From Micromonospora sp. AMSO31t (GTDB lineage: Bacteria; Actinomycetota; Actinomycetes; Mycobacteriales; Micromonosporaceae), in the NCBI RefSeq assembly GCF_008868175.1, contig NZ_WBKT01000011.1:1-64000 (forward strand): a stretch of 64,000 bases of DNA, in the 5' to 3' direction. Below the pieces are notes generated by a model. The model was not told the DNA's origin. It did not search any database and saw nothing but the letters and a program-made list of their open reading frames with translations. Of the stretch, positions 22,015-43,335 are shown one piece after another. Both the position numbers and the translations under genes were made by a program. The stretch's first letter is position 1, and each line of letters starts with the position of its first letter.

Positions 22015-23013
22015 TCATACCTGCGATCCCTTCGACGACCAGAGGTCCAGCGCCCAGGCCAAGTGGGCCTCTAGGTAGTCCGGACGGGGGCGGACCTGAG
22101 GTGGAATGGCTAAGACCCTGCCGTCGAGAAGCGCAAGCTCCGGAAAAGACAACAGCGGGGGCGCTACGTGTACGGTCCAGCTGGACGGGTCGACAGCCAG
22201 CAGGAACTGATCGAAGAGCGAGTGCAGGTCCCGGCGAAGCAGAATGCCGCCCTGTACATCGTGCTCACCGGCATTGCAGTAGCGGTAAAGGTGGGCGGCT
22301 TCGATGGCAGCAGCGGGCTGCGGACCCGTGATAAGGCAGCGGTCACCGAACCGTTGGCGGAGCACCTGCCTGAACTTCGCCTGACCGATTCGGTAGCGGC
22401 CGAGCATGTTGCGGTGTCCGCCGGCGATCTGCGGATCGGTGGCAGCTATCCACCACTGCAGGCCTGGGTCGGCAGATTCGGAGAAACGGTGCATCACCAA
22501 GTCGGGGTCAAGCTCCCGAATTGAGTGCTGCTGGGAGCGGGAAAGGTAGGTGGGTGCCAGCTCGGTGACGCGGAGATCGGTGGTCGGCCGCCAGGTACGG
22601 GTGTAGTCACCGATATAAACCGTCACGTCGATGCTCTCCTCAATCGGCAGATCGAACGTCGCCTGGCAGGGTGAACATTTGTAGCGCGGTGTTGCCTCCT
22701 TACGCGGTTTGAACGAGGTGTTCCGGCACTCGGGGCAACGACGCCTCACCTTGGTCTGCGTCTCGGTGTGGACTTCGTCGATCCAGCCCACCCCGAGGAC
22801 GAAGTTGCGGTCACGTAGCACGGCGAGGTCTTCCGGCCGGACGGAGGCATGATGCGGAACGGTGTTGTCCCACGCATAGCGGCTGCCCAGAATGTCCCGA
22901 TAGCCAGAGTTGCCCCCGAACTGGCGGTCGTCATCGTCGATCGTCAGAAAGCTCCATGCTCGACCCATGGCAGTGCTTTCTACCGCAATACTTTCCTTCG
23001 CAACATTGATCAT
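22015..23013 (-). CDS. HNH endonuclease with N-terminal PUA/EVE-like reader region and zinc ribbon
   Basis: 332 residues. The C-terminal third is an HNH_2-type nuclease: FRQVLRQRFGDRCLITG, AAHLYRYCNAGEHDVQGGIL and LRRDLHSLFDQFLLAVDP give the His-Asn-His triad. A four-Cys zinc ribbon occurs at CPECRNTSFKPRKEATPRYK and CSPCQATF. The N-terminal AWSFLTIDDDDRQFGGN, WDNTVPHHASVRPEDLAVLR and FVLGVGWIDEV pattern resembles PUA/EVE-type domains that read modified bases (by eye, weak). A modification-dependent (type IV-like) restriction role is inferred. ATG 22968 is an alternative start matching the usual beginning of such proteins. It diverges from the helicase gene. Confidence 0.75.
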   Translation of the reverse strand: MINVAKESIAVESTAMGRAWSFLTIDDDDRQFGGNSGYRDILGSRYAWDNTVPHHASVRPEDLAVLRDRNFVLGVGWIDEVHTETQTKVRRRCPECRNTSFKPRKEATPRYKCSPCQATFDLPIEESIDVTVYIGDYTRTWRPTTDLRVTELAPTYLSRSQQHSIRELDPDLVMHRFSESADPGLQWWIAATDPQIAGGHRNMLGRYRIGQAKFRQVLRQRFGDRCLITGPQPAAAIEAAHLYRYCNAGEHDVQGGILLRRDLHSLFDQFLLAVDPSSWTVHVAPPLLSFPELALLDGRVLAIPPQVRPRPDYLEAHLAWALDLWSSKGSQV

Positions 23014-23329
23014 TCAGTCCGCCCTGTGGCCTGCAACTGGTAGCGAACCGGTGGCCGGTCGGGGGGCCCGTTGGCAGGACCCTTGGCTGTAGGGTCGGCA
23101 GAACCGCCATGGGGAGGTGGGTCCGTGCATGCTGGGCTGGTGACTGAGCCCAGACGGGAGACGGGGGTCTCTCTTGCAAGGTCGGTGGGCTCGGCCCACC
23201 GCAGACGCATCTGCCGGCTGAACGCTGCAGTGCCTCGCTCGGGTTCACGTTTCCCGACACACGTTCCCCTGAGACTCACCGGTCGTCGGGCTGGCTGCGC
23301 AGCCCGCTGACCTGATCCGAAGGTGCTAC
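23014..23329. promoter_or_regulatory. Divergent intergenic region between HNH and helicase genes
   Basis: No gene is supported here. An inverted repeat with 8-bp arms (CGGTGGGC at 23183-23190, GCCCACCG at 23194-23201, spacer TCG) is a candidate operator or hairpin. Promoters for both divergent genes must lie here; no clear -10/-35 pair was identified. GAAGG precedes the helicase ATG at good spacing. Confidence 0.45.
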
Positions 23330-26300
23330 ATGTTCAGCCGCTCCACGCCCACGTCGGAATCGCCGTCGCTGATCCTCGACCGCGCCACGTCCTTGGTCGA
23401 GTACCTGATGGCCGTTCGCGCCCAGATGGAGAAACCGGCCCGGACGGTGTCGCAGGCCGACGCCTTCTGGCAGCACGAACTACCCGCTCACGCAGACTGC
23501 CAGGTGGGCGTCTCGCCCGACGGCAGCGCCTGGCTGCGGGTCGGTCTCCCGACCGCGCCGAAGCAGCTCCGGGCACCCGCGGAATTCAGCCCGTATGTTG
23601 CCGGGCCGCTGTCGTACGAGACCGAACCGCGGCTGGCTGGCGACGAGGAGACGGTCGAGCGCCTGCGTGAGCGGTTCGAGCAATGGCGGGAGCGAGACTG
23701 GCGTCCGTGGGCCGAGCAGGCTCGGCGTACGGAGGCAGTACGTCGGCTGCACCGGAGCCTGTTCGACCTCAAGCACCGCGTCGACATGAACGCGGCCACC
23801 CACGAGCTGGTGTGGGGGCATGGCGTCCTGCGCACGGACGTGGGCGCAAACCGCGTGCAGTACCCGCTGATCGTGACCCCGGTGGCCATCGAGTTCGACG
23901 CCGACCGATCGATGATCACGGTGGTGCCGCAGGGTGCCGGCCGCCTCCAGACCGATCCGCTGACCGGTCTCGACGAGCGGTACCTCAGCCAGCTGCTCGC
24001 GCTGGCCGGTCCCGGCGGTCAGCTCGACCTTGACGTCTGGGAAGACTTCTCCCGCCAGGAGTTCCTCGGACGGGCGCTGCGTCGGCTCGGGCTCGACCCG
24101 ACCCTTCGCGCCGCCGACGCTCCCGCCCCCGCCGGCTCGTACGTCCACGACACCGGAGTGCTCTTCGTCCGGCCTCGGCAGCGGATGCTGCGCCGGTTCC
24201 TCGAGGAACTGCGCGCTCGCCTGCTCAGTGGTGACACCGCGAGTATCGGTGCGCTCGCCGCCATTCTCGCGCACGAGCCGAGCCGCCTGGAGATGCCGCA
24301 CGACCAGCCGGACCGGTGGACGCCGCTGGGAGAGCGGCTGCTCATGCCACTGCCCACCAACGAGGCGCAGGAGTCCATCGCCCGCCGCCTCGCCCAGCAC
24401 CGCAACGTGGCCGTCCAGGGCCCGCCCGGCACCGGTAAGACCCACACCATCCGCAACCTGATCTGCCACCTGATGGCCCACGGTAAGCGGGTGCTCGTGG
24501 TCGCCCAGAAGGAGGACCCGTTGCGTGTCCTGCGCGACGGGCTGCCTCAGGAAATCCAGTCGCTCTGCCTGGCGGTACTCGGCCGCTCCACCGACCAGCT
24601 CGTCCAGCTTCAGCTCGCCGCACGGGAACTCTCCGACCGAGGCGCAACCCTGGACCGGCGCAGCGAGCAGCAGCGGGTGGACCGGCTGCGCCGGCAGCTC
24701 GAGGATGCCGAACGGGACCTCGGCCAAGCGCTCGGCGCGCTGCGCACCCTCGCCGAGAACGAATCGGCACACTACGAGATCGACGGCATCCGGCTGTCGC
24801 CGAGCGACGTCGGCAGCTGGCTACGTGACCGCGCCGCCCGGTACGGCGACATTCCCGACGAGATCCCACCGCACCTCGACGCCCCGCTCTCCGTCGAGGA
24901 GTTCACCGACCTGCTCGACATCGCCCGCCGTACCGTCCGCCAGGACCGCACGCAGTCGCTGCGGCACCTGCCGACGGCAGCCGCGCTGCCGACCGCCTCG
25001 GCGCTCCTCGCCGCGCGGCGGGAACTCGCAGCCACCCGCGCCGAGCTCGACCGGCTCATCGTGGACGGGGTGATGCTCGCGGAGGTACGGGCGTTCGGCC
25101 GGCCCGCGCTCGATGAACTGGTCCGACACCTGCGCGAGGCGCTCGCCCTCCTGACCGCCCGCGAGGGCGCCTGGACGGACATGCTCGCCAGGCTGCTGCA
25201 GGCAGACCCCAACTGGCGGGCCATGTGGGAGGACCACGTCGCGGCCTGCCAGCGCGCGCTCGCCGAGCTCGCTGCCGCGACCCGGGTCGTTGCCGGGCAC
25301 CGGGTGATCGTCCCCGATGCGCACCTCGCCGAACCGCGCCGGCTGCTGGCTCAGCTCGGCGAACTGCGTCAGCGCTTCGCCGCCGGCAAGGGCGTCAGCA
25401 AACTTTTCCAAGGGGCTCTCGCCAAGCTCGCGGCCGACTGCCGCATCGACGGTGAGATCCTGCGCGCCACCGATGATGTCGACGTCGTCCTCGCGTACGT
25501 CAACCGCCTGCGGCTCCGGCAGGAACTGGCCACCCGGTGGACCGAGTGGCGCACCCGGCTCAACCTGCCGCAGGAAACCGGCGAGCCCGAACTCTGGGCC
25601 GGCCGGCTGCTCACCGACGCGGCGACCGCCCTGGACTGGGACCGCCGGCGCTGGCCCACCCTGCACGCGACGATCCTCCGCCTGGTGCCCCGGGTCGAGC
25701 CGGCGGTCGACGTACGCCGGCTGACCGCGCTCACCGACACGGTCGCCCGGTGCGCCGCTGTCTTCGAGTACGACCGGCTCGTCACCGACGAGCAGAACCT
25801 CGGTGCGCTGCTGCAGCACGGCATGTCGAACACCGAGGCGAGCGAGCTGTGGCGGCTGCTGGACCAGACCCGCCAGCGGGCGGATGTCGAAGGCTGGGAC
25901 GGCCTCCTGGACGAGGTGCGGCGCCTGGCCGGTCTGCGCCCGGACGCGCAGCGGTTCGTAGAGCTCGCCGAACGGCTCCGTCCGGCGGCCCCCGCGTGGA
26001 CCGCCGAGATCGACGGTGGCGAGGCGTCCGCCCTCGCCGGCACCGGCGGTGACTGCATGCACCGGTGGCATTGGCGCCGTGCCCAGACCTGGTTCGACGC
26101 CGTCGTGGGCAGCGTCGACCCGGTCGCGCTCGGGCGGCGGGTCGAGCAGACGCGGGACCGCATCCGGCGACTCACCCAGGAACTCGTCGTCGCCTCCTCC
26201 TGGCTCGAGGTCTCCCTGGCGCTCGACGACCGTCGGCGGGCCGCGCTCGCCGACTGGACCACCGCCCTCCGCAAGATCGGCAAGGGTACGGGAAAGAACG

Positions 26301-28993
26301 CCGCCCAGTGGCAGGCGCACGCCCAGCGGGCCATGAGCGCCGCCGTCGACGCCGTGCCGGTCTGGGTCATGTCCGTCGACCGGGCCATCGAGCAGTTCGC
26401 CGGCGGCGCGCACTTCGACGTCGTAATCGTCGACGAGGCGTCGCAGGCCGACATGTTCTCCCTGCCCGTCCTCAGCCTCGCCGAACGGGCCGTCGTCGTC
26501 GGCGATGACCAGCAGATCGGCCCGCAGCTGTCGTTCGTCGGCACGGTCACCGGCCTGATCAACTCGCACCTGGTCGACGTGCCCTCCGCGGAGCATTTCG
26601 ACCCCGAGAGCAGCCTCTACGACCACGCCGTCCGACGCTCCCCTGAGCGGATCCTGCTCACCGAGCACTTCCGCTCCGTGCCGGCGATCATCGGCTTCTC
26701 CAGCGAGACGTACTACGGCGGGGAGATCGAACCGCTGCGCACAGACCGGCCCGCCGGCATCGGCGACCCGGTCATCGCCGTGCACGTGCCGGAGGGCATC
26801 CGCCAGAACGTCGCCAGCTACGGCGACGTCAACGTCCCCGAGGCCGAAGCCCTCGTCGCGCGGGTCGCGACGATCGTCGCCGATCCGGCCTACGAGGGAC
26901 GCAGCATCGGGGTGGTGAGCCTGCTCAGCACCAGCGGCCAGGCCCTCTACCTGCTCACGCGGCTCCGTGAGGAGATCGGCGAGGAGGAGATGGAACGACG
27001 TCGGCTGCGCGTCGGTGACTCGTACACCTTCCAGGGCGACGAGCGGGACATCGTCCTCGTGTCGATGGTCGTGGAGCCGCACCACGGCCCGGTCTCCGCC
27101 TTCACCAAGCGTGACCACCACCGGCGGGTCAATGTCGCGGCCTCCCGGGCCAGGGACCAGATGTGGGTGTTTCACTCGGTGCAGCCAGCCGACCTGCGCC
27201 AGGACGACGCCCGCGGGCTGCTGCTCACCTACTGCCAGAACGTTGCCGCTGTCGACGAGGGGTACGACGACCTGGAGAAGCGCTGCGACAGCGACTTCGA
27301 ACGCGAGGTGCTCCGCCGCATCCTGCGCCGCGGGTACCGGCCGATGCCACAGTTCCGCATCGGTGGATACCGGATCGACTTCGTCCTCCCCGCACGAGAC
27401 GGGCGGCGGCTCGCCATCGAATGTGACGGTGACGCGTACCACGGGCCGGACCAGTGGGAGAGCGACATGCGCCGGCAGGCGGTGCTGGAGCGCGTCGGCA
27501 ACTGCGTCTTCGTACGGATCCGGGGGAGCGTGTTCAGCCGGGATCCGGAGGCGGCGCTGGAGCCGCTGTGGCAGCGCATCGACGAACTCGGCGTCGTTGT
27601 TCCCGAGCCGACTGGGGAGCCTTCCCGAGACCTGCCAGTTACTGCGGCACCTGCCGGCGGGAACGAGTCGGCCGAGGTCCGGACCGATCTGCGGGTGCCG
27701 GATCAGCGTTCGCGAATCGATGAGAGCGAGAGCCTCATTGGCGGGGCCGCTGGACGTGCGGCGAAACCGGCGAACAGTGGTGTTCCGACTGCGACCGAGG
27801 CGTCAGTCGAGCCCGCCGAGGACGCTTCCGCGACAAGTGGCGAGCAGGGCTTACCAGAAGCTGCCGAGGATGAGGACAAGGCATCTGTGCAGATCGGCGT
27901 CACCGAACCCACAGGCCATGGGACGCCAAGCCTCAGGCCTGAAGCCGTCGATGTTCCTGAAGCTCACTTGGCCGTCGCTGCACCCGTCGTTCCGACGGTG
28001 GTCGTGGCTCCCGTACAGACGATGCCTGATCCGGCCACGTCACCGGTCCGCAAGCGTCAGGACGAGAGCGGTCTGGATGAGTGGGTGCCTCCCGGCTACC
28101 GCAGCATCGCCTGGCTTCGTCCGTACGAGGCGATGGCTGCCCTCGAGAGCTACCGACACGGCCGTGACACTCCCATCCGTCATGGCGGCAAGGTTCTGGG
28201 CTGGGCCCGGCATCAGGGTGGCACCTCAACCGAAGCTCGTCCCCACCGAGCAGATGTCCGCATCGAGCGAGCCGACGCCGGGGGGGCGCGCTTCGTCTGC
28301 TGGGTACGCCAGAACGAGGCGGAGGCCGTCGTCCGCACGGCGAGCACAAGGAAGGACAGCCCTTGCGACACCGACGACGGTCGGAGGGAGGGGCTGGTTC
28401 AATACTTTGCCCCGACCAGCCCGGCTGCTATCCGGAACCGGAGCGTCACCCGTCTGCTGCGCTCTTCCTGGGAGGAAGCTGCACCACACAGCGAAAAGGC
28501 GCCCGTCGGCGAGGTGCAGGTTCCAGCCGGTGTGAATCCTGAGGGAGCAAACAATTCGGAGCCCCGGGCTGCCCTGCTGCAGAAGACGGGTGAGGATGAA
28601 CTCGCTACGTTCCCAGCGATGCCGGGCGAGAGCAATGGACGACAAGGCGGAACTTCCGGCCCGTCGGTGGCTCCCGGAATCGGCGCCGTTGACCGGGGGA
28701 GCCTTGAGGCAAACTTCCACCGGGAGATGGTCCGCATCTGTCAGCGGGCGAGGGACGAGGTCAGCTATCACCCGAGCCTGTTGCTGCGCCTGGTGACTGA
28801 GAAGGGCGGACTGGCCAGCGCGCGACAACTGCTGCACAACCCCGCGATCTCAGATGGCTTCACCGCACTGTGGGAACGGGGACGAGTGGATCTCACGGCA
28901 GAGGCGCTCGCACTGCGTCCGGAGTTCCACGCCCTGTTCACTGAGCAGGAACTAGAAGTCGCCCGGAGCCGTGTGAAAGCAGCATCGTCGTGA
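23330..28993 (+). CDS. Giant SF1 helicase fused to a Vsr-like (MTES_1575-type) nuclease and two C-terminal modules
   Basis: 1887 residues. Helicase motifs are Walker A GPPGTGKT (364-371), Walker B FDVVIVDEASQADMFS (about 1030), VGDDQQIGPQ, LTEHFRSVPAIIGFS, SYTFQGDERDIVLVS (about 1230) and RRVNVAASRARDQ. This is the DUF4011/UPF1-like SF1 arrangement with a 650-residue coiled insertion between motifs I and II. Residues about 1324-1425 are an endonuclease domain (GGYRIDFVLPARDGRRLAIE then CDGDAYHG). After an acidic linker, residues 1585-1717 form a domain shared with the neighbouring sigma-like protein. Residues 1790-1887 are a helical module found at the ends of other restriction-type proteins. 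Predicted role: ATP-driven DNA translocation and cleavage. Confidence 0.9.
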   Translation: MFSRSTPTSESPSLILDRATSLVEYLMAVRAQMEKPARTVSQADAFWQHELPAHADCQVGVSPDGSAWLRVGLPTAPKQLRAPAEFSPYVAGPLSYETEPRLAGDEETVERLRERFEQWRERDWRPWAEQARRTEAVRRLHRSLFDLKHRVDMNAATHELVWGHGVLRTDVGANRVQYPLIVTPVAIEFDADRSMITVVPQGAGRLQTDPLTGLDERYLSQLLALAGPGGQLDLDVWEDFSRQEFLGRALRRLGLDPTLRAADAPAPAGSYVHDTGVLFVRPRQRMLRRFLEELRARLLSGDTASIGALAAILAHEPSRLEMPHDQPDRWTPLGERLLMPLPTNEAQESIARRLAQHRNVAVQGPPGTGKTHTIRNLICHLMAHGKRVLVVAQKEDPLRVLRDGLPQEIQSLCLAVLGRSTDQLVQLQLAARELSDRGATLDRRSEQQRVDRLRRQLEDAERDLGQALGALRTLAENESAHYEIDGIRLSPSDVGSWLRDRAARYGDIPDEIPPHLDAPLSVEEFTDLLDIARRTVRQDRTQSLRHLPTAAALPTASALLAARRELAATRAELDRLIVDGVMLAEVRAFGRPALDELVRHLREALALLTAREGAWTDMLARLLQADPNWRAMWEDHVAACQRALAELAAATRVVAGHRVIVPDAHLAEPRRLLAQLGELRQRFAAGKGVSKLFQGALAKLAADCRIDGEILRATDDVDVVLAYVNRLRLRQELATRWTEWRTRLNLPQETGEPELWAGRLLTDAATALDWDRRRWPTLHATILRLVPRVEPAVDVRRLTALTDTVARCAAVFEYDRLVTDEQNLGALLQHGMSNTEASELWRLLDQTRQRADVEGWDGLLDEVRRLAGLRPDAQRFVELAERLRPAAPAWTAEIDGGEASALAGTGGDCMHRWHWRRAQTWFDAVVGSVDPVALGRRVEQTRDRIRRLTQELVVASSWLEVSLALDDRRRAALADWTTALRKIGKGTGKNAAQWQAHAQRAMSAAVDAVPVWVMSVDRAIEQFAGGAHFDVVIVDEASQADMFSLPVLSLAERAVVVGDDQQIGPQLSFVGTVTGLINSHLVDVPSAEHFDPESSLYDHAVRRSPERILLTEHFRSVPAIIGFSSETYYGGEIEPLRTDRPAGIGDPVIAVHVPEGIRQNVASYGDVNVPEAEALVARVATIVADPAYEGRSIGVVSLLSTSGQALYLLTRLREEIGEEEMERRRLRVGDSYTFQGDERDIVLVSMVVEPHHGPVSAFTKRDHHRRVNVAASRARDQMWVFHSVQPADLRQDDARGLLLTYCQNVAAVDEGYDDLEKRCDSDFEREVLRRILRRGYRPMPQFRIGGYRIDFVLPARDGRRLAIECDGDAYHGPDQWESDMRRQAVLERVGNCVFVRIRGSVFSRDPEAALEPLWQRIDELGVVVPEPTGEPSRDLPVTAAPAGGNESAEVRTDLRVPDQRSRIDESESLIGGAAGRAAKPANSGVPTATEASVEPAEDASATSGEQGLPEAAEDEDKASVQIGVTEPTGHGTPSLRPEAVDVPEAHLAVAAPVVPTVVVAPVQTMPDPATSPVRKRQDESGLDEWVPPGYRSIAWLRPYEAMAALESYRHGRDTPIRHGGKVLGWARHQGGTSTEARPHRADVRIERADAGGARFVCWVRQNEAEAVVRTASTRKDSPCDTDDGRREGLVQYFAPTSPAAIRNRSVTRLLRSSWEEAAPHSEKAPVGEVQVPAGVNPEGANNSEPRAALLQKTGEDELATFPAMPGESNGRQGGTSGPSVAPGIGAVDRGSLEANFHREMVRICQRARDEVSYHPSLLLRLVTEKGGLASARQLLHNPAISDGFTALWERGRVDLTAEALALRPEFHALFTEQELEVARSRVKAASS

Positions 28994-29016
28994 AGCGTTG
29001 AAGTGACGCTGAGATG

Positions 29017-29048: not shown

Positions 29049-29054
29049 TCTCCC

Positions 29055-31838: not shown

Positions 31839-31876
31839 GCAGTGGTCCTCTCATGCTCGTACGGTGAGCGACGATG

Positions 31877-34887: not shown

Positions 34888-37682
34888 TCGTCCGGATCCT
34901 CGTCATCGAAGAGATCGATCTCGAGTTGCCTCCAGACGTCATTGACCACGTACTCGGTCTCAGTCGGATGCTCCGAGAACGGGAAGCTGATCGCGAAGCC
35001 GACCAGTGGAGGAAGGCTGGCGTCGGTTTCCCGCTCGGGGTGTTCGATCGGATATATCAGGAGCAAGGGCTGTTGCACGGGTCGGAACCTTCGGAGCGGC
35101 TGGCCGGTGGGGATGCTCGGCTCTTTGAACTTCTTCCCCTTGCGCGCCATTTCGAGCCGGCGAGCGGCGCTCGTCGCCTCCAGAGCGCGTGCTCGGAGTT
35201 CATCGGAGAGGTCCCTGCTCTCGTCCGTTGGGCTGAGGACCCGCTTGATGGTGTGCCGCCCCTCTTCCGGCTCCATGCCTTCGGGACGGGAGCGGGTCAC
35301 GAGACGAACTGGGTGCTTACCAATCTCACGCCACGTTCCGGTGGGCGTGCCCACCAGCCGCACCGTCCAGTGGGACAGCTCGCCCACCGCGACGCAGCCG
35401 CGGATGTACTGGGCGATGAGCGCCGGACGCACGCGGTAGGAGCCGCGGTCGGAGATGTACCCGTCGAGGAAGCCGTCGATGATCTCGGTTGGCGGAACGC
35501 CTCGCCAGACCAGGCTGGTCCCGTCGTGCTCAGGACCGCCCTGCTGTTCCAAGCCGGTGATGAAGCGTTCGAGGATGTCGAAGTTCCGCCGGACAGCCTC
35601 AGGGTGCAAACTGAAGACCGTCGTCTCGGGGAGCTCGCCGGAGTAGCTGAGCCGCACCTTGACGCCGCGTCGCATCTTGTTGGCGGCGGTGACCGCCAGC
35701 CCGGCGGGAGAGGCGCGGACCCGCAATCCGAAGCTCTCCGGCGTCTGACCGAGGCGGGCCATCTCCTCGAAGTCCCGACGGAGCTCGTTGTCCGCAGCAG
35801 TGATCTCCCCGTACGACTTGAAGAGCTCGGACGTCGTGTACAGCCGGCACAGGTCCTCGTAGCCGGGTCGGTAGCCGAACCAGCGCCCCATCTGCAGGAG
35901 CGTGTCGTACATGGACGACGCTCGCAGGTAATAGCTCACGCTGAGACCCTCCAGCGTGAGTCCGCGGGAGAGCTTTTCCGCCCCCACGGCGATCACGGAC
36001 AGCCCGGCCTTGCGCTTCTCGTAGTATTCGAGCGCGTCGCGGGAGGTGCCATTGACGGCCCGCACATCGATTTTCCGGAGAGCCGGTCGCAGCTCCTTCT
36101 CGACGTCAATCCAACCTGTCGGCGAGGCCTCCTCGGCCGGGAACGTCGCACTGGTGACGGCGAAGTCCCGCTCCCACAGGTCCCGAAGCTGGGCAAGCAA
36201 CTGGGCGGCCTCCCCGCCCATCCCGTCGCGGAGCCGGTCACGCATCAGCTCAACGTATTCTTCGATCTGGTCGCGGATCCGATTCTGCACGCTGACGAAC
36301 CGTGTGACGTGCACGAGCATCGAGTTGTGCTGACTGCCCTGTCCCCGCACCCGACGGGCAGCGCACGTCAGAACGAAGGCATCGATCGCCTCGCGGAGTG
36401 ACACGGGAAGTTCCTCCGACGGCACCCATTCCTTCTTGTGCCGGCGAGGCATCCATTTCTCGTGATCATGAACGGGGCGGAAGATCGGGAGCGGCTTGAT
36501 CCCGTCGTCCTCCGGGTCCGTCGCGCTCAGTCCGAACACCCGTTCCGGTCCCAGGTAGTTCGAAGGCGCGGGCAGGCTCTCGATGAAGCTTTCGGGGAAC
36601 AGGTCGAGCCCGAACGTGTCGTGGTCCGCCTTCGGCTTGATGTAGATGTTGGCAAAGGGCGTCGCGGTGTATCCGACGTACGCCGCCTTGTCGAAGCTGT
36701 TGAGCAGATGCCTGATCGACCGGTTGATCGTCGAGGGGTCGGTGTCATCGTCCTTGGTCGTGTCGACGGATGCGTGATCCGCCTCATCGTCGATGACGAG
36801 GAGCGGAATGTCCCGCACGACCTTGGACTTACCGTCCCCGGCGGGCACACCCTCAACCTCGACGATCCACTTGCGGACGTTCTCGAGGATGCTCTTGTGC
36901 TTCTTGATCACGAGTACGACTGGGTAGTCACCGATCGGCAGGTTGAGGTTCCTGGCTATCTGCTGCTTGAAATCTCCACCCTCCGAGCTGTTCGTGAGTG
37001 ACGCGATCTTCAGCCGCTTCACGCCTGGCATAACTCCGACACCAATGCGTGCCGTCTTCGTCGTCTCGTCGTAGCGCTGCTGGTACTGCGTGTCGAAGCC
37101 GAGCAGGCCTTCGTCGACCCGGAGCTGAGTCTGGCTCCGGAGGCTGTTGTGGATACCGGCAAGTATGACGATGAGTTTGTACCCGGCGTCGGCCGCCTTA
37201 CAGGCGAAGCCGATGTAGTTGCCAGTCTTGCCTGACTGCACCTGGCCGACCACCAAGCCGGTACGACGCCAAGCGCCCGGACGCCGTGGGTCCTCGATCT
37301 GGCGCAGGATGCGATCCGTGCTCTGGTCCAGCCGGCGGACAACCCTCGGCGGCATAAGGCGCACGTCCTCGAGATACCGGCGGTAGCGGTCCCAAAAGTC
37401 CCAGCTGCGCTCCAGTTGAGCTTCGGTGAGCCACTCGATGTGGTTGCGATCGTCCTTCAAGCCGACCGAGTCGTCCTGCCACACCGCAACCCGCGACTCG
37501 ATCTCCTTGAACAGGACGTCCCGGTCAAGCAGCTGCCCACGGGATTGCTGCATCACCCAGATCGGGTCGACGTTTTCTGCGATCTCCTCCTGCGTCGCCT
37601 GCCGGTCCTGAGGCAACAGTGCGAGCACGAGCCGGATCGCCTGCTGCATCGCGTCATTGCTGTCCTGCGTATGCGCGGTCAT
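34884..37682 (-). CDS. Z1-domain SF2 helicase-like ATPase
   Basis: 932 residues. Walker A is GQVQSGKT (146-153), Walker B is VIDDEADHAS (296-305), motif III-like is YTATPFANI, and the C-terminal helicase lobe carries LSRGLTLEGLSVSYYL and QMGRWFGYR (597-605). This combination defines the Z1 domain proteins, predicted SF2 motors of unusual restriction systems that also contain GHKL ATPases. The lysine and both acidic residues are intact, so ATPase activity is expected. It lies between the GHKL and DUF4420 genes in the operon. The last 200 residues carry no recognised domain and may bind partners. Confidence 0.92.
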   Translation of the reverse strand: MTAHTQDSNDAMQQAIRLVLALLPQDRQATQEEIAENVDPIWVMQQSRGQLLDRDVLFKEIESRVAVWQDDSVGLKDDRNHIEWLTEAQLERSWDFWDRYRRYLEDVRLMPPRVVRRLDQSTDRILRQIEDPRRPGAWRRTGLVVGQVQSGKTGNYIGFACKAADAGYKLIVILAGIHNSLRSQTQLRVDEGLLGFDTQYQQRYDETTKTARIGVGVMPGVKRLKIASLTNSSEGGDFKQQIARNLNLPIGDYPVVLVIKKHKSILENVRKWIVEVEGVPAGDGKSKVVRDIPLLVIDDEADHASVDTTKDDDTDPSTINRSIRHLLNSFDKAAYVGYTATPFANIYIKPKADHDTFGLDLFPESFIESLPAPSNYLGPERVFGLSATDPEDDGIKPLPIFRPVHDHEKWMPRRHKKEWVPSEELPVSLREAIDAFVLTCAARRVRGQGSQHNSMLVHVTRFVSVQNRIRDQIEEYVELMRDRLRDGMGGEAAQLLAQLRDLWERDFAVTSATFPAEEASPTGWIDVEKELRPALRKIDVRAVNGTSRDALEYYEKRKAGLSVIAVGAEKLSRGLTLEGLSVSYYLRASSMYDTLLQMGRWFGYRPGYEDLCRLYTTSELFKSYGEITAADNELRRDFEEMARLGQTPESFGLRVRASPAGLAVTAANKMRRGVKVRLSYSGELPETTVFSLHPEAVRRNFDILERFITGLEQQGGPEHDGTSLVWRGVPPTEIIDGFLDGYISDRGSYRVRPALIAQYIRGCVAVGELSHWTVRLVGTPTGTWREIGKHPVRLVTRSRPEGMEPEEGRHTIKRVLSPTDESRDLSDELRARALEATSAARRLEMARKGKKFKEPSIPTGQPLRRFRPVQQPLLLIYPIEHPERETDASLPPLVGFAISFPFSEHPTETEYVVNDVWRQLEIDLFDDEDPDE

Positions 37683-37729
37683 GTGGCCCTCCCCGTTGAT
37701 CTGATGTGCGGTCGGCGGCGGTAGGGCCG

Positions 37730-39232
37730 TCAGCGTTGTTGCCAGAAACCGTCGAACTGGTCGAAGGGCGGCATGAGCGCAAGTCGCTCCTTCGCCTCGC
37801 GGGGAGTGCGGCCCTGGGCGACGAAGGCGGCATAGATGCGGTTCGCCACGTCGCCCACCTCCTTGGGCGCGGCTCCGAGGAACGGCTCGGGGTCGTCGGC
37901 CACGTCACCGTCGTGCATGATCCGTAGTGCGGCCACCGGGACGGTCTCTTCCAGGAGCCTGATCAGCGCCTTCGCGTCGACAGCGGCGTCGGGACCGCCC
38001 TGCATCACCTCCCGGACCAGGGGGTGATCGCGGTTGATGCGGCACCGGATGTTGCCGTCGCGCTTGTCCACCCGCCATGCGTAGATGAACTCGGCGCCGT
38101 GTTCCCGGGCAGCGATCCGACCACGATGGCTGAGCACCTCGGCGGCCCTGCTGCGAGTAGCCGTGCCGATGCGTTGGAGGTGGCGCCGCACACCGACCGG
38201 AGGGACCGCCGTCGACTTCCGCACATCGATGGCCCATTCGGCGTCCGCCTCGGCGGGGACGTCCACGACGATCCGCGCGAGGTTGTACCGCTCGTCACGT
38301 CGGAACCCGCGGATGCCGAGCCAGTCGCCGGCGAGAATGAGTCGGTCCCGTCGGTACACGTAGAAGCCCTGCTGGTCGAGCCAGCCAGCGGGTCCGGCAG
38401 CCTGTTCCTGCTGCCGTGAGTCGAGCTTCTTGGGGTGCGGCAGGATGAATGGTTCGATCCGGACGGTGTGCGAACCAGCCGGCAGGTCCTCGGTAGGAAG
38501 TCGCTGGACCGAAGGGTGCCCGCTGAGAAACGGGTCCCACGCCTCCACCGGAGTGCCGTTAACCGTCATCGCGATTCGGTTTCGGCCCGTCAGGAAGCGG
38601 GCGAACACCATGCCGAGGTGTTCCTCGACGCGGGTCGCCTCCGTGTAGAACTGCTTCTGCGCTCGGGTGTCCTCCACCGTCAGGCCGTCGACATTGAACC
38701 GGTGCAGGCTCCGCCAGATCACCGTCGTGCCGGCACCACTGCGCCGTCGCAGCTGGGTGAGTGTTGCGCTGGTCTCTTCATCCGTGCCGTGCAGCAGGCG
38801 CCACTCACTGGTTGCGGAGACGACGCCCAGATCCCAGGTGCGAACGGCCTCGGCGGTGCCGGCGCCGGGCCTCGTTGCGACAGTCAACCGCGAGGCCTGG
38901 GAGAACGAGGCAGACTTCAGACCCATGCCGAAACGGCCGAGGTCTTCGGATGCGCGAGCCTTGAAGGAGCCGCGAGCCGCAACGGTCATCGCACTGACCA
39001 GGTCCTCGGTCGTCATGCCTCTGCCGTCGTCGGCGACCGCGACCCACGAGGCTGGACCCGCCCAGGTGAAGTAGACGTCGATGTGCCGGGCGCCCGCCGA
39101 GACGCTGTTGTCAACCAGGTCCGCGACGGCGGCCTCGACGCTGTACCCGAAGGACCGCAGCGAGGTGATGGTTCCGGCGGGATCCGGGTTGGCGATGTCG
39201 TAACTCAAAGCAGGTCGGCTCCAGTCGGGCAC
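37730..39232 (-). CDS. GHKL (MutL/MORC-like) ATPase 1, first gene of the defence operon
   Basis: 500 residues from GTG 39232. The Bergerat fold is complete: N-box AAVADLVDNSVSAGA (34-48), G1 ADDGRGM (67-73) and G2 LGRFGMGLKSAS (98-109). At the position of the usual catalytic Glu of the N-box there is Asp (ADLVDNS). A MutL-type S5-like transducer region follows (residues 220-340), then a C-terminal 120 residues without a known motif. GHKL proteins of this kind (paraMORC group) occur in restriction-modification neighbourhoods with SF2 helicases and nucleases. They are thought to clamp and remodel DNA. It leads the operon and diverges from the methyltransferase gene. Confidence 0.88.
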   Translation of the reverse strand: MPDWSRPALSYDIANPDPAGTITSLRSFGYSVEAAVADLVDNSVSAGARHIDVYFTWAGPASWVAVADDGRGMTTEDLVSAMTVAARGSFKARASEDLGRFGMGLKSASFSQASRLTVATRPGAGTAEAVRTWDLGVVSATSEWRLLHGTDEETSATLTQLRRRSGAGTTVIWRSLHRFNVDGLTVEDTRAQKQFYTEATRVEEHLGMVFARFLTGRNRIAMTVNGTPVEAWDPFLSGHPSVQRLPTEDLPAGSHTVRIEPFILPHPKKLDSRQQEQAAGPAGWLDQQGFYVYRRDRLILAGDWLGIRGFRRDERYNLARIVVDVPAEADAEWAIDVRKSTAVPPVGVRRHLQRIGTATRSRAAEVLSHRGRIAAREHGAEFIYAWRVDKRDGNIRCRINRDHPLVREVMQGGPDAAVDAKALIRLLEETVPVAALRIMHDGDVADDPEPFLGAAPKEVGDVANRIYAAFVAQGRTPREAKERLALMPPFDQFDGFWQQR

Positions 39233-39416: not shown

Positions 39417-39432
39417 CCACCCGTACGGGTGG
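39417..39432. promoter_or_regulatory. Perfect palindrome in the divergent promoter region of the modification system
   Basis: CCACCCGTACGGGTGG, a 16-bp perfect palindrome, lies in the 254-bp region between the GHKL operon and the methyltransferase gene. The surrounding bases 39370-39415 are the most AT-rich of the region (GTTATGTATCTTTTG). A TTGACA at 39458-39463 could be a -35 element for the methyltransferase, without a convincing -10. The palindrome is a good candidate operator for controlling both directions. Confidence 0.5.
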
Positions 39433-39486
39433 TTGGTTGCTCAGGCCAACGGTCGGGTTGACAGCAGCACGCAATGAGTCGGCGGT

Positions 39487-41493
39487 GTGTCGGGATGGGC
39501 GATCGTCGAGACAGGCGACCTGGCGGTAACCTGCCTGATCGTGACCAGTGAAGACCAACCCGCCGCCGCCCCTGTTCGTCGCCGCGGGTACGGGGTCAAG
39601 CTGGTGCGCGGTCCTTTCGTTCGGCTTGCTCCTCACCCTGACGCCTGCTCCGAGCCCGAGGAGCTCGCTTCCTTGGCGTCGAGGCTGAGGGCAAATGGTG
39701 GCAGGTTGGCCGCCGACCTCTTCAGCGGTGCTGGTGGCCTCAGCTTGGGGCTGGAAGCTGCCGGTTACCAGGTGGTGATCGCGGTGGATCACGACGAGGA
39801 AGCAATAGAAACGCATCGACACCACCACGGCGGGATGAGCGTTGACTGGGACCTCGGGGACCCGGAGCGGGTTCGACAGGTGGCCGAACTGATCAAGACG
39901 GCGGGAGTGGAACTTCTGGCTGGCGGCCCTCCCTGTCAGCCGTTCTCCAAGGCTGGGCGTTCCAAGATCAGGCATCGGGTCCGTCACGGGCTGCGCGACC
40001 CGTACGACGAGCGCCGGGACCTGTGGCGCTCCTTCCTTGAGATCGCTCGCACCGCCCGCCCTCAGGCCGTGCTCATGGAGAACGTGCCGGACATGGCCCT
40101 GGACAAGGAGATGTTCATTCTCCGGACCATGGTGCATGAGCTGGAGTCGATCGGTTACTCGGTCGAGGAGCGCTCGGTCGAGACCTTCCGCTACGGCGTT
40201 CCGCAGTTCCGCCAGCGGCTCATTCTGGTGGCGCTTCGGGGCGGCGCAGCTTTTGCCTGGCCGCAGGAGCAGCGCGAGCGGGTGACGGTCTGGAACGCAA
40301 TCGGTGATCTTCCGGAAGTGGAAGGTGGATGGCGGCCGGAGGGCGGGGCGGAGGGCTGGAGCGACTACGACCGACCGCAGAGCGAGTTTCAGCGGCGCAT
40401 GCGAAAGTCGGTGCCTGCGGACGACGCGAACAAGATCTTCGACCACATCACGCGCCCCGTCCGCGAAGATGACGCTCGCGCCTTCGAAGCGATGGACGCC
40501 ACCACGCGGTACCGGGATCTCCCGGATGAGGTCAAGCGATACCGCGAGGACATCTTCGACGACAAGTACAAGCGGCTCGACGAGAACAACCTGTCGCGCA
40601 CGATCACCGCGCACATCGCAAAGGACGGCTACTGGTACATCCATCCGCGGCAGAACCGCACCATCACGGTTCGCGAGGCGGCACGACTTCAAACGTTCCC
40701 GGACTGGTTCCGCTTTGCCGGGCCGCCGTCTGCGGCGTTCCGCCAGATCGGCAACGCCGTTCCCCCGCTGCTGGGAGAGCACCTCGCCGGTGCTGTCCGC
40801 GCGGCTCTGGACGATCCCCGACCGGTGCCCGCGACGACGCAGGACATTGCTGCGCTTCTCGCCGCGTGGTTCGACAGCGCTGTGGTCCGCGGCCTTCCGT
40901 GGCTGAGGGCGGAAACCCGCTGGCAGGTGATTCAGGCCGAAATGCTTCTGGACCGCGCGCCGGCCGAGGTGGTGCGCTTCATCTGGCCACTTCTGGCCCG
41001 CTGGCGTGAGCCGCAGGAAACCGTCCTCGCGGAGGCTGAGTTGCTGGAGATCAGCAAGTGGGCAGGGCGGCCGGGTCGGGCGGGGGCGATTCTGGAACTG
41101 GCCGGCCGACTCGCCGACAACCCGAAGCTGCTCCGGGACGACGACCAGCTCCGCCAGGTCCCGGGGCTGACTGAAGCGGTGGCCGATCTCGCGATTCTCG
41201 TGGTGCCCGCACACACTGAAGAGGAGTCCGAGGAGCCGGTTCTCGTGACGAAGGGTGTACTCCGTGTCGCCGCCCGCTTCAGCGGTGATCCTGTCGATCG
41301 TCGGAACCGACTCACGGACGGCCGCTTGGAGATCGCCCGGATGATCGGCGCCGACTCGGACGCCCGGCGAGCCCATCTGGGGCTGGTCGAGCTGGCCAAC
41401 AGCCTGTGCCGTCCGGTGGAACCGGAGTGCAACGCCTGCCCGCTCCAGAAGCTCTGCTCGGAGTCGCGCGCGGACCCGCTACGGCTCTTCTGA
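39487..41493 (+). CDS. DNA cytosine-C5 methyltransferase fused to an HhH-GPD (EndoIII/MutY-like) Fe-S domain
   Basis: 668 residues from GTG 39487 (GTG 39541 is a possible later start). All C5-methyltransferase motifs are present: I DLFSGAGGLSLG (78-89), IV GGPPCQPFS with Cys150, VI ENVPDMA (199-205), VIII QFRQRL and X QIGNAVPPLLGEHLA. From 455 on, RGLPWLRAETRWQVIQAEML, GRPGRAGAILELAGRLADNP and QVPGLTEAVADLAILV follow the HhH-GPD glycosylase plan. It ends in the EndoIII-type cluster loop C-X6-C-X2-C-X5-C (641, 648, 651, 657). The usual catalytic Asp position (VDTHV in family members) reads VTKGVLRV, so glycosylase activity is doubtful. It probably modifies host DNA, with the extra domain reading mismatches or 5mC. 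Confidence 0.9.
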   Translation: MSGWAIVETGDLAVTCLIVTSEDQPAAAPVRRRGYGVKLVRGPFVRLAPHPDACSEPEELASLASRLRANGGRLAADLFSGAGGLSLGLEAAGYQVVIAVDHDEEAIETHRHHHGGMSVDWDLGDPERVRQVAELIKTAGVELLAGGPPCQPFSKAGRSKIRHRVRHGLRDPYDERRDLWRSFLEIARTARPQAVLMENVPDMALDKEMFILRTMVHELESIGYSVEERSVETFRYGVPQFRQRLILVALRGGAAFAWPQEQRERVTVWNAIGDLPEVEGGWRPEGGAEGWSDYDRPQSEFQRRMRKSVPADDANKIFDHITRPVREDDARAFEAMDATTRYRDLPDEVKRYREDIFDDKYKRLDENNLSRTITAHIAKDGYWYIHPRQNRTITVREAARLQTFPDWFRFAGPPSAAFRQIGNAVPPLLGEHLAGAVRAALDDPRPVPATTQDIAALLAAWFDSAVVRGLPWLRAETRWQVIQAEMLLDRAPAEVVRFIWPLLARWREPQETVLAEAELLEISKWAGRPGRAGAILELAGRLADNPKLLRDDDQLRQVPGLTEAVADLAILVVPAHTEEESEEPVLVTKGVLRVAARFSGDPVDRRNRLTDGRLEIARMIGADSDARRAHLGLVELANSLCRPVEPECNACPLQKLCSESRADPLRLF

Positions 41494-41511
41494 GCCGGGT
41501 CCGTCAGCGGC

Positions 41512-42816
41512 TCATGGCTCCAGACCCAGCGACTGGGCGATCTCGGGGGCGTCCTTGCGCAGGGTCGCCGCGATCCGTTGCCAGGCGGCCCACTCGCCGG
41601 ACTGCATCGCCGCCGCTCTCAGGGCGAGCCCGGTGGTCGTCGCCGCCTGCGTGGCGGACCGGACGTCCGAGGACATGTTCAGGTCCTGTGGCAACGGCTT
41701 TGCCTTCACCCGGGCGCTCTTGCGGTAGGCGTCGTTGGCGTAGAGGCACAGCTCGTTGACCGGTGCCTCCAGCATCTGACGCAGCTGGGCTGGCAGTGAG
41801 ACCCGCATCTTCGCGACGTTGATGTTGAAGGCGGAGTCGAGGTCCGTGCTGAAGTCGAGCGAAGCCCGGGCCATTTTGGTGTGTTCGTCGATGCCGCGGA
41901 TGGCATTCCAGCCACCCCACTGCACCAGCCGGTCGGCGCGGTAGACGTAGAGCCCCTGTTGTCGGTTCCAGTTCAGTGGCCCGGACAGTCGCTCGAATTC
42001 GCTCGGGCTGGAGAACCTGTCACGGGACGGCAGGATGAAACGGCGTAGGTCAACGTGCCCGGACACGTTGCCGACGGCGACCTCGAAGCGCTGTGCGGGC
42101 AGCTCAGAACGACCGTCCTCGTCAGGGGCGAACGGGTTCCACGGTCGTACCTTCTGACCGTTGACAGTGATGACGATCGGGGCGTGTCCGCCCACCCCTT
42201 CCAGGAATCGATGGAAAACGATCCCGAGGTGTTCCGCTGTCTTCGTCGCCAGCGCTTCCAGTCGCCGGCGCGCCCAACCTCCCTCGGGGCGGTTCTCAGG
42301 AAGCACGCGGTCGAGGTTGCGCCAGAGGACGACGGTTCCCGTCCCTTCGGCCAGCCACTGGCGAGCTCTGGCAACATCCGGATCCGCGCCAGGGTCGACC
42401 ACTACCCACTGGTCCCACTCCTCGACGATGTCAAGGTCGAGGACTCGGGCTGAGGTCCGCACGACGTCGGGGTTGCTCCGGGAAATCACGGCCACCGAGC
42501 GGCACTGCGACAGGGATGCCGTCTTCAGCCCCAGCCCGTAGCGGCCGAGTTCACCAGCCTTATACGTCCGGCGTGTGCCCAGCCGGAGTCCCTCGAGCAG
42601 CGCTCCGGGAGACATGCCGCGTCCGTCGTCAGCGATGTAAACCCGCGTCTTCGACCCAGCGAACTCGATCATCACCTCCACCCGCGACGCGCCGGCGGCG
42701 ACGCTGTTGTCAACGATGTCCGCCACTGCGGTCGGGAAGTCGTAACCGATGTCGCGCAGCGAGTTCGTCAGGCGTGCAGCCGAGGGTGCGACGTCGAACC
42801 ACGTCTTGCCGGGCAT
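41512..42816 (-). CDS. GHKL (MutL/MORC-like) ATPase 2
   Basis: 434 residues from ATG 42816, with GGAGGTGG in front at good spacing. Bergerat fold: N-box TAVADIVDNSVAAGA (29-43), G1 ADDGRGM (62-68), G2 LGRYGLGLKTAS (90-101). As in the other GHKL protein, Asp replaces the usual N-box Glu. The C-terminal half shares the layout of GHKL 1 (GLYVYRADRLVQWGGWNAIR against the corresponding region of GHKL 1), so the two are paralogues. Its stop faces the methyltransferase stop with 18 bp between. It lies 42 bp downstream of vsr and is probably co-transcribed with it. Two such ATPases may form a heterodimer like MutL pairs. Confidence 0.88.
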   Translation of the reverse strand: MPGKTWFDVAPSAARLTNSLRDIGYDFPTAVADIVDNSVAAGASRVEVMIEFAGSKTRVYIADDGRGMSPGALLEGLRLGTRRTYKAGELGRYGLGLKTASLSQCRSVAVISRSNPDVVRTSARVLDLDIVEEWDQWVVVDPGADPDVARARQWLAEGTGTVVLWRNLDRVLPENRPEGGWARRRLEALATKTAEHLGIVFHRFLEGVGGHAPIVITVNGQKVRPWNPFAPDEDGRSELPAQRFEVAVGNVSGHVDLRRFILPSRDRFSSPSEFERLSGPLNWNRQQGLYVYRADRLVQWGGWNAIRGIDEHTKMARASLDFSTDLDSAFNINVAKMRVSLPAQLRQMLEAPVNELCLYANDAYRKSARVKAKPLPQDLNMSSDVRSATQAATTTGLALRAAAMQSGEWAAWQRIAATLRKDAPEIAQSLGLEP

Positions 42817-42858
42817 CCGCCCACCTCCGTCAAGTCGTCCCTGGTGACGACCAGGATG

Positions 42859-43335
42859 TCACAACCTACGTCGTGATCTTGAAACAGGAGCCGGCGGTGT
42901 CCGCAGATGCCGCCATGTCTGCTCCAACTCCTCCGCCACGGCCGCAGGGTCCTCGTGTTCCCAAAAGTGCCGAACCTGCCAGCCCAGCGCCGTCAGTGCC
43001 GCGTCCTTCTCCCGGTCCCGTTCGACGTTTCGACGCAGCTTCGCCTGCCACCACTCACGGTTGTTTTTCGGCATCACCCCGTGCTTTGGACATTGGTGCC
43101 AGAAGCACCCATCAACGAAGACGGCCAGACGTGCTCTGGTGAAGGCGATGTCAGGTCGTCCCGGCAGCGCAGGATGGTTGATCCGGAACCTCAGACCGCG
43201 GCGGTGTAGTTCTCGGCGGACGAGTAGCTCGGGCTTGGTGGAGGCCCGGCGCATCCGCCTCATCTGGTTGGAGACGGCTTCGCTCAACGGTGCTGGCTGC
43301 CGACCGCCAGGCAAACCTCCGGATCCGCTAGTCAT
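42859..43335 (-). CDS. vsr: Very short patch repair (Vsr) endonuclease
   Basis: 158 residues from ATG 43335. The Vsr signature is complete: MRRMRRASTKPELLVRRELH, LPGRPDIAFTRARLAVFVDG with catalytic Asp62, and CFWHQCPKHGVMPKNNREWW with the zinc/active-site His and Cys. Vsr nicks 5' of T in T:G mismatches made by deamination of 5-methylcytosine, so it accompanies C5-methyltransferases. That fits the methyltransferase of this island. The frame is open 70 codons further upstream, but that part is low-complexity; ATG 43335 begins a typical Vsr N-terminus. It starts the vsr-GHKL 2 unit and marks the right edge of the island. Confidence 0.93.
   Translation of the reverse strand: MTSGSGGLPGGRQPAPLSEAVSNQMRRMRRASTKPELLVRRELHRRGLRFRINHPALPGRPDIAFTRARLAVFVDGCFWHQCPKHGVMPKNNREWWQAKLRRNVERDREKDAALTALGWQVRHFWEHEDPAAVAEELEQTWRHLRTPPAPVSRSRRRL

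What the first reader, a model, noticed from the sequence alone, without database searches (positions are those of the whole stretch)
22015..43335. Ten-gene modification/restriction island of unusual composition
One lower-GC block joins a C5-methyltransferase, two GHKL ATPases, a Z1 SF2 motor, a DUF4420 PD-(D/E)XK protein, an AIPR protein, a sigma4/alphaCTD composite, a giant SF1 helicase-nuclease, an HNH nuclease and Vsr. GHKL-Z1-methyltransferase-Vsr neighbourhoods were predicted as restriction-modification systems by comparative genomics of MORC/MutL-like proteins (paraMORCs). The full set, with the helicase tied in by a shared domain, looks like a larger, undescribed version.
Basis: partly seen in the sequence, partly recalled or inferred. 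Interest (0 to 1): 0.9.

Follow-up and report, generated by a model that had tools for sequence, protein, structure and literature searches.

The report
Phage-defence island with a chimeric helicase
This stretch of a Micromonospora genome carries a relative of a known anti-phage system (Mza) plus a large helicase-nuclease whose tail seems to have arrived with the system and resembles the tail of one of its proteins, which suggests, but does not prove, that the two work together.

Summary
All ten genes are present. The core is not undescribed: GHKL, Z1, DUF4420 and AIPR are distant relatives of MzaB-E (PADLOC E 2e-23 to 5e-198; all below NCBI equivalog cut-offs). A C5-methyltransferase, and often Vsr, accompany Mza-like loci in other Actinomycetes, Alphaproteobacteria and Bacteroidota. 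HNH is loosely linked (2 of 7 islands).

Two parts look new. (1) MzaA, a sigma factor, is replaced by a 927-aa protein (sigma region 4; weak alphaCTD and HARE-HTH) at the operon's end. (2) This protein and the convergent 1887-aa SF1 helicase-nuclease share a C-terminal, unnamed, internally duplicated domain (40% identity) without a clear structural match. In 250 family genomes both occur in 7, always adjacent; helicases also occur alone. The helicase looks chimeric: its body is host-like in GC and does not follow Mza linkage in its tree; its tail mostly has island-like GC and does.

Best reading: a methylation-linked Mza-like defence locus whose shared domain may recruit a resident helicase-nuclease. 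Hitchhiking of the tail is a serious rival. The methyltransferase also carries a conserved, apparently inactive MutY/MIG-like domain.

The parts
22015..23013 (-). HNH_2 endonuclease; loosely associated neighbour
   Evidence: Pfam PF13391 E 4e-11; homologue in 2 of 7 islands, the window included
23330..27619 (+). SF1 helicase-nuclease, body (residues 1-1430): AAA_11/AAA_12 helicase and MTES_1575 nuclease
   Evidence: GC 0.713; tree of residues 1-1400 does not follow Mza linkage
27296..27580 (+). MTES_1575 restriction-endonuclease-like domain of SF1 (residues 1323-1417)
   Evidence: Pfam PF18741 E 4e-26; acidic motif present
27620..28993 (+). SF1 tail (residues 1431-1887): linker, shared domain, linker, conserved end
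   Evidence: GC 0.661; tails (1401-1887) of the 7 island SF1s form one clade 99/97
28082..28462 (+). shared duplicated domain in SF1
29055..31838 (-). SIG: sigma region 4 composite protein (weak alphaCTD, sigma4, weak HARE-HTH, shared domain)
   Evidence: PF04545 E 1e-9; PF03118 0.0015 and PF05066 0.005 on fragments, both below cut-off; last gene of the mzaBCDE-like operon, 38-bp gap
29073..29453 (-). shared duplicated domain in SIG (residues 796-922)
   Evidence: AF2 model of 29058-29492 mean pLDDT 87.5
31877..33886 (-). AIPR protein, MzaE-like
   Evidence: PF10592 2e-97; PADLOC MzaE 6e-90; NCBIfam MzaE 395.8 bits, cut-off 1050
33883..34887 (-). DUF4420 PD-(D/E)XK protein, MzaD-like
   Evidence: PF14390 7e-81; PADLOC MzaD 2e-23; NCBIfam 128.7 bits, cut-off 420
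34884..37682 (-). Z1 SF2-type motor, MzaC-like
   Evidence: PF10593 1.5e-83; PADLOC MzaC 5e-198; NCBIfam 761.6 bits, cut-off 1500
37730..39232 (-). GHKL1 ATPase, MzaB-like
   Evidence: PADLOC MzaB 2.7e-113; NCBIfam 451 bits, cut-off 850
39487..41493 (+). C5-cytosine methyltransferase
   Evidence: PF00145 3e-56; PCQ, ENV and QxRxR motifs
40855..41469 (+). C-terminal MutY/MIG-like extension of the methyltransferase (residues 457-661)
   Evidence: TIGR01084 mutY E 1e-9, below cut-off; PDB 1kea E 7e-7; Pfam gives only EndIII_4Fe-2S at E 4.8; alignments
41512..42816 (-). GHKL2, second paraMORC-like ATPase
   Evidence: PF13589 6e-26; 36% identical to GHKL1
42859..43545 (-). Vsr mismatch endonuclease (start uncertain)
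   Evidence: PF03852 1.5e-20; TIGR00632 130.6 bits, cut-off 97.85

Best explanation
A methylation-linked, Mza-like anti-phage locus. The C5-methyltransferase marks the host's own DNA, and Vsr repairs T:G mismatches that arise from it (inferred from the families). A complex of the MzaB-like GHKL ATPase, the Z1 motor, the DUF4420 nuclease and the AIPR effector attacks unmarked DNA by ATP-driven movement and cutting (inferred; for CglI, which has a Z1-containing motor, ATP-driven translocation is proposed from experiments). SIG, in the same operon by its spacing, takes the place of the sigma factor MzaA as DNA-binding, recognition or regulatory subunit (inferred). The SF1 helicase-nuclease is a defence gene in its own right that can live without Mza (its occurrence without Z1 is shown; its function is inferred). 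When the island enters, its own SF1 tail is joined by recombination to a resident SF1 body (supported by trees and GC). The tail carries the same duplicated domain as SIG, and I propose that the domains let SIG recruit the helicase-nuclease to degrade the target (not shown). The confidence given is for the whole without this last step; the docking step alone I put at 0.3 (see the section on the most novel reading).
For: MzaB-E similarity. Methyltransferase and Vsr near MzaC-type loci of other families: 9 of 9 and 7 of 9; also annotated in three of five plasmid loci read, with methyltransferase alone in a fourth. SIG and SF1 adjacent in 7 of 7 family genomes that hold both; co-occurrence of SF1-with-domain and MzaC-type Z1, Fisher p 5e-8, not corrected for kinship. 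Discordance within SF1: for the body the 7 island-linked proteins held together as a clade are rejected (AU p 2e-7); their tails are a clade, 99/97. Tail GC lies between host body and island, nearer to the island, in 6 of 7 islands. Co-variation with SIG peaks at the SF1 domain. The domain is under purifying selection in both proteins, dN/dS 0.07-0.19 in three within-island pairs, linkers 0.36-0.97. CglI: PMC4267653 passages, PMC5737866 abstract.
Against: No activity, complex or methylation was tested. All Mza matches lie below NCBI equivalog cut-offs. SIG shares only sigma region 4 with MzaA (19.1 of 800 bits; no PADLOC match at E<=10). SIG with the domain occurs without SF1 in 2 genomes; SF1 with the domain occurs without Z1 in 7. 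SIG of G021 has no such domain. In G001 the SF1 body and tail do not differ in GC. The SF1 tail lies next to SIG, and for W-G241 synonymous divergence is raised in both tails (0.94-1.09 in SF1, 1.03 in SIG) over the SIG body (0.51) and SF1 body (0.33), as one recombined segment across both would give. The co-variation test rests on 7 loci and 21 dependent distances, with overlapping intervals.
Confidence: 0.5

Rival explanations
1. Hitchhiking: SF1 is merely a common resident gene of a chromosomal hotspot. Incoming Mza cassettes recombine through its body, so the 3' tail comes along because it is next to SIG. The helicase is a separate defence gene with no functional tie.
For: Homologous flanking genes bracket Mza+SF1 (window, G221), a divergent Mza without SF1 (G211) and SF1 + PLD/DUF3427 type IV-like enzyme (G141). 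G187 and G141 share 93% DNA over the SF1 body; the match ends near codon 1457, with only a 204-bp stretch at 76% further on. SF1 with the domain exists without Z1 in 7 genomes. Raised synonymous divergence spans both tails for W-G241.
Against: It does not explain why two otherwise different proteins carry the same domain, nor why the SF1 segment nearest to SIG (residues 1800-1887) co-varies less with SIG body (rho 0.29) than the domain does (0.95). That contrast is weak: bootstrap 5-95% ranges -0.01-0.62 and 0.54-0.90.
Confidence: 0.35
2. The shared domain is a DNA- or modification-binding module used independently by two proteins that act on the same DNA, without direct contact between them.
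For: It is fused to nucleic-acid enzymes, and SF1s without Mza keep it although no second domain protein was found in those genomes.
Against: No clear structural match to a DNA-binding fold, which excludes little; binding was not tested.
Confidence: 0.1
3. About SIG only (compatible with the others): it is not a subunit of the attacking complex but a transcription regulator of the operon, or a phage-sensing factor acting on RNA polymerase.
For: Sigma4 and weak alphaCTD and HARE-HTH matches; MzaA is described as a sigma factor (PMC9523054).
Against: No other sigma-factor region was matched by Pfam; the shared domain stays unexplained.
Confidence: 0.2

Closest known systems
Mza (MzaABCDE), Gao 2020 (paper not held; known here through PADLOC and NCBIfam names and PMC9523054)
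   Same: GHKL-Z1-DUF4420-AIPR in the same order in one operon as in the Thalassospira locus that hits all five PADLOC Mza models; the four window proteins hit MzaB-E
   Different: All below NCBI equivalog cut-offs; no MzaA; SIG at the other end of the operon; GHKL2 and SF1 added
Type II putative system of Miller 2022 (PMC9523054, section 11 read)
   Different: That section names no SF1 helicase; its proteins were not compared here
paraMORC restriction-modification neighbourhoods, Iyer 2008 (PMC2292703, passages)
   Same: GHKL ATPases with SF2 helicase, methylase, Vsr; AIPR and HNH are mentioned
   Different: The word sigma does not occur in its main text; the passages seen name no SF1 helicase with a shared tail
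Corynebacterium diphtheriae BH8 island (PMC5379612, passages)
   Same: Z1, DUF4420 and C5-methylase genes in one island
   Different: EcoRII-like endonuclease there; no GHKL, AIPR or SF1 named in the passage
CglI/NgoAVII (PMC4267653 passages; PMC5737866 abstract)
   Same: C5-methyltransferase with a Z1-containing motor; nuclease coupled to ATP hydrolysis
   Different: Nuclease is PLD-B3 there; no PLD domain found in the ten proteins here
Hhe, ProA, PDC-S37 and Mko (Mokosh, name recalled) helicase proteins
   Same: SF1 helicase core aligns, with the nuclease region too for Hhe, ProA and PDC-S37
   Different: Hhe 147 of 2000 bits, ProA 199.1 of 1500; the SF1 tail alone matches no PADLOC model at E<=10

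Membership tests
Mza | MzaB, C, D, E homologues in one operon | tested here: met
   PADLOC E 2.7e-113, 5e-198, 2e-23, 6e-90; consecutive, same strand, gaps -4 to 47 bp
Mza | NCBI equivalog cut-offs for MzaB-E | tested here: not met
   451/850, 761.6/1500, 128.7/420, 395.8/1050 bits
Mza | MzaA sigma-70 factor | tested here: not met
   SIG: 19.1 of 800 bits, sigma4 only, no PADLOC match at E<=10. Control: the PADLOC MzaA model hits the Thalassospira sigma factor at 1.2e-72, but it also hits ordinary sigma factors
Mza | anti-phage activity | not testable with these tools
   needs plaque assays
paraMORC restriction-modification neighbourhood | GHKL ATPase + helicase-type motor + DNA methylase + Vsr | tested here: met
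Miller 2022 type II | Z1 + PD-(D/E)XK + C5 methyltransferase + AIPR | tested here: met
   met by domain content; sequence comparison with their proteins not done
Hhe or ProA helicase-nuclease (SF1) | NCBI equivalog cut-off | tested here: not met
   147/2000 and 199.1/1500 bits
CglI type restriction enzyme | PLD-family nuclease subunit | tested here: not met
   no PLD domain among the ten proteins at E<=0.001

The most novel reading that the evidence does not exclude
The shared duplicated domain is a portable docking module. An incoming Mza-like island carries, at its edge, a replacement tail for a helicase-nuclease gene that the new host already has; recombination makes a chimera, and the tail enlists the resident effector into the incoming system through SIG.
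Probability: 0.3. Interest if true: 0.8.

Novelty: new variant of a known kind. Interest (0 to 1): 0.5.

Why it matters
If the tail is a docking module, a defence island would gain a subunit by re-tailing a gene of its new host, a concrete and testable route by which composite defence systems are assembled. If it is hitchhiking, the locus still suggests how a common defence gene can serve as a recombination arm for exchanging whole systems at a hotspot. The methyltransferase fused to a conserved, apparently inactive glycosylase-like domain, beside Vsr, is a second testable oddity.

Tried and rejected
A single undescribed ten-gene system: rejected, because the core resembles named systems, HNH is in 2 of 7 islands, and helicase and SIG were found in 0 of 9 stretches outside the family. 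SIG as MzaA: rejected on sequence. A one-piece low-GC block: rejected. Domain copied from one neighbour to the other after they became linked: not favoured, since the SIG and SF1 domains form two groups (100/99) and both occur unlinked.

Led nowhere: Foldseek on the domain model against PDB (best E 0.21) and viral structures (best E 0.095), VIA-align 2 (best Z 4.0); PDB profile search with the domain (0 matches) and with the SF1 end (best E 0.58); the SIG domain on plasmids (no match); the whole-SIG model (mean pLDDT 41, not used). The single-unit search added, beyond the known proteins, only hits at E 0.001-0.008, which I did not follow. The divergent intergenic region was aligned but not analysed for operators. 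PADLOC's MzaA model hits 149 of 149 genomes, at the sigma-factor part, so it gave no Mza contexts. Paper searches for Mza, Z1, DUF4420, MTES_1575, HARE-HTH, the glycosylase fusion and the helicase names listed no paper that by title or start of abstract describes SIG, the shared domain or the fusion; most listed papers were not opened (among them PMC3710099 and PMC7159879, which hold search terms), so this is not proof of absence. PMC12137116 and PMC10740426 were seen in passages only and added nothing on mechanism.
Full report
WHAT IS THERE. The window most likely belongs to Micromonospora: three named Micromonospora loci encode the Z1 protein at 78-92% identity, and one of them, L003, agrees in contig length (129952) and Z1 position with G241, which is listed as the window's own genus. 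Ten genes lie between 22015 and 43545. GHKL1, Z1, DUF4420, AIPR and SIG run in one direction with gaps of 47, -4, -4 and 38 bp, an operon by spacing. SF1 converges on SIG (61 bp), the methyltransferase diverges from GHKL1 (254 bp) and converges on GHKL2 (18 bp).

THE CORE IS MZA-LIKE. PADLOC models MzaB, C, D and E match at 2.7e-113, 5e-198, 2e-23 and 6e-90. NCBIfam gives the same names, but each score is below the equivalog cut-off: 451/850, 761.6/1500, 128.7/420, 395.8/1050 bits. MzaA, described as a sigma factor (PMC9523054, section 11), is not found in the island: SIG shares only sigma region 4 with it. Miller 2022 describes a putative type II system of Z1, PD-(D/E)XK, cytosine methyltransferase and AIPR, associated with a MORC protein and a putative regulator, and Iyer 2008 predicted GHKL-helicase-methylase-Vsr restriction systems (passages). 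So the core is a variant of known kinds.

DISTRIBUTION. Of 250 family genomes 50 hold a Z1 domain. I took the 13 places with E<=1e-80, one per genome, as MzaC-type; the second Z1 of G231 (1.2e-77) also lies in a Mza-like cluster and was not counted. In these 13 loci (the window's own genes): GHKL1, Z1, methyltransferase and Vsr 13 of 13; GHKL2 11 of 13 (split between frames in G001); DUF4420 and AIPR 12 of 12, SIG 10 of 12 and SF1 7 of 12 that can be judged (the G055 contig ends in DUF4420). HNH is in 2 of the 7 SF1 islands; beyond the SF1 5' end the stretches reach 3.8 kb or more, except in G231, where HNH lies within 1.5 kb. Among 394 class genomes 10 have MzaC at E<1e-180, the own genome included. 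In the stretches around the other 9, all from other families (one contig, G369, ends 4 kb after Z1): GHKL1, Z1, DUF4420, AIPR and methyltransferase 9 of 9; Vsr 7 of 9; GHKL2 2 of 9; HNH 1 of 9; SIG and SF1 0 of 9. Of 30 plasmid records with a Z1 match five were read: three have ATPase, Z1, PD-(D/E)XK and AIPR with methyltransferase and Vsr; one (Thalassospira) has them with methyltransferase but no annotated Vsr in the stretch; one (Streptomyces) shows Z1 with an AAA ATPase and mostly unnamed genes. Two of the five (Thalassospira, Neorhizobium) have an annotated sigma-70 gene before the ATPase.

THE SHARED DOMAIN. SF1 1579-1711 and SIG 783-922 are 40% identical (E 4e-25). A profile finds it in 13 of 250 family genomes: 9 copies in frames of 926-1010 aa (SIG) and 11 in frames of 1787-2062 aa (SF1). 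Both occur in 7 genomes, adjacent in all; SIG alone in 2; SF1 alone in 4. In the class set of 394 it is in the own genome and 3 others, there in SF1-like frames and with a gap inside. Of the 7 genomes with SF1 alone (4 + 3) none has a Z1 match. SIG of G021 lacks the domain, and no SF1 was found beside it. The domain is a tandem duplication: half 1 against half 2 gives probability 98.2, E 4e-14, 26% identity; five column-shuffled controls give at most 2.2. The model is good (mean pLDDT 87.5, pTM 0.82); no clear structural match was found, which does not show the fold to be new.

SF1 LOOKS CHIMERIC. In a tree of 20 domain copies SIG and SF1 separate (100/99). For the SF1 body (1-1400, 11 proteins) the 7 island-linked ones are not a clade (AU p 1.7e-7): G187 pairs with PLD-linked G141 (100/100), and PLD-linked G147 falls with W, G241 and G001 (100/100). 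For the tail (1401-1887) the 7 form one side of a branch (99/97) and the two PLD-linked ones group (96/90). G187 and G141 are 93.2% identical in DNA over 4643495-4648090, and that match ends near codon 1457; a further 204 bp near the gene's end match at 76%. G187 and G221 are 89.2% identical over 25.7 kb. In six of seven islands the body has GC 0.710-0.735 and the tail 0.652-0.688, next to a Mza block at 0.646-0.660; in the seventh, G001 (another genus), body and tail are alike (0.688, 0.689). The two PLD-linked SF1s have tails of 0.726-0.727; the two other lone SF1s also have like bodies and tails (0.672/0.669, 0.698/0.699). Most simply, the tail came with the island and was joined to resident bodies. 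The window, G221, G211 and G141 share flanking gene families (in the window an APH-family gene at 665 and an FAD/NAD oxidoreductase at 47138, a 45-kb interval that also holds unrelated genes), i.e. one hotspot with exchanged content.

DOCKING OR HITCHHIKING. Rank correlation of 21 pairwise distances among 7 islands: SF1 domain with SIG body 0.95 and SIG tail 0.85; SF1 body with them 0.07 and 0.34; SF1 end (1800-1887), nearer to SIG, 0.29 and 0.36; SF1 domain with single core genes 0.32-0.64. In sliding windows up to residue 1825 the two that cover the domain give 0.68-0.82 with SIG; the others reach at most 0.58. Column bootstraps against SIG body give 5-95% ranges 0.54-0.90 (domain) and -0.01-0.62 (end), which overlap slightly. 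dN/dS of the domain is 0.08, 0.12, 0.19 in SF1 and 0.07, 0.14, 0.07 in SIG for three within-island pairs, against 0.36-0.97 in linkers; the SF1 end is as low (0.08, 0.14, 0.08) and the SF1 body 0.17-0.18, so low values are not special to the domain. Against docking, for W-G241 dS is 0.33 in the SF1 body, 0.94-1.09 in the SF1 tail, 1.03 in the SIG tail and 0.51 in the SIG body, as a single recombined segment over both tails would give. This favours a kept role for the domain in both proteins; it does not prove contact, and adjacency remains a confounder. The Fisher p of 5e-8 for co-occurrence ignores kinship.

METHYLTRANSFERASE EXTENSION. Residues 457-661 match mutY (TIGR01084, E 1e-9, 38.4 bits, cut-off 286.5) and best PDB chain 1kea, a G-T mismatch repair enzyme (E 7e-7); Pfam gives only EndIII_4Fe-2S at E 4.8. 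23 proteins, the window's included, carry the extension: 15 of 18 (three short ones lack it) and 8 more (G290 was not called as an ORF and is left out). All 23 keep four cysteines (one with spacing x7), and none has Asp where 1kea has it in VDANFVRV; that this Asp is catalytic is recalled. I read the extension as a DNA- or mismatch-binding relic (inference).

MECHANISM. Shown: gene content, order, most motifs, co-occurrence, discordant histories within SF1. Inferred: self-marking by 5mC, attack on unmarked DNA by the GHKL-Z1-DUF4420-AIPR set, SIG as recognition or regulatory subunit, and recruitment of SF1. For a Z1-containing motor, CglI work supports ATP-driven translocation (PMC4267653 passages; PMC5737866 abstract).

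MENDED ON CHECKING. The 0.5 of the best explanation is now stated to exclude the docking step, which stays at 0.3.

Noticed in passing
window 40855-41469: C5-methyltransferase carries a MutY/MIG-like extension with four conserved cysteines but no Asp at the recalled catalytic position; 23 of 23 aligned proteins with the extension agree.
   Followed up: partly
G229 5998717-6000945, G231 1608840-1611476, G021 30024-32198, L005 1263-3434, G349 219995-222172: A second, divergent Z1 gene (32-37% identity) lies within about 10 kb of the main Mza-like locus.
   Followed up: no
G165 167394-171182 and G217 294633-298457: Vsr-GHKL2-methyltransferase (70-75% identity) sit beside a different Z1-DUF4420 pair (about 27-31% identity), so these three genes look like a separable modification module.
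   Followed up: partly
G147 30708-33782, G141 471928-474990, G241 40935-42126: A PLD/DUF3427 type IV-like helicase sits tail-to-tail with SF1 in two genomes; fragments of a relative lie at the 5' side of SF1 in G241.
   Followed up: partly
G103 309939-316823: The place next to SIG that SF1 takes elsewhere holds a HerA-like ATPase, a PDC-M02B protein and an HNH_2 gene.
   Followed up: no
G001 2702466-2703763: GHKL2 is split between two frames; frameshift or sequencing error.
   Followed up: no
window 28475-28990: SF1 ends in a further conserved region of about 90 residues without Pfam or clear PDB match.
   Followed up: no
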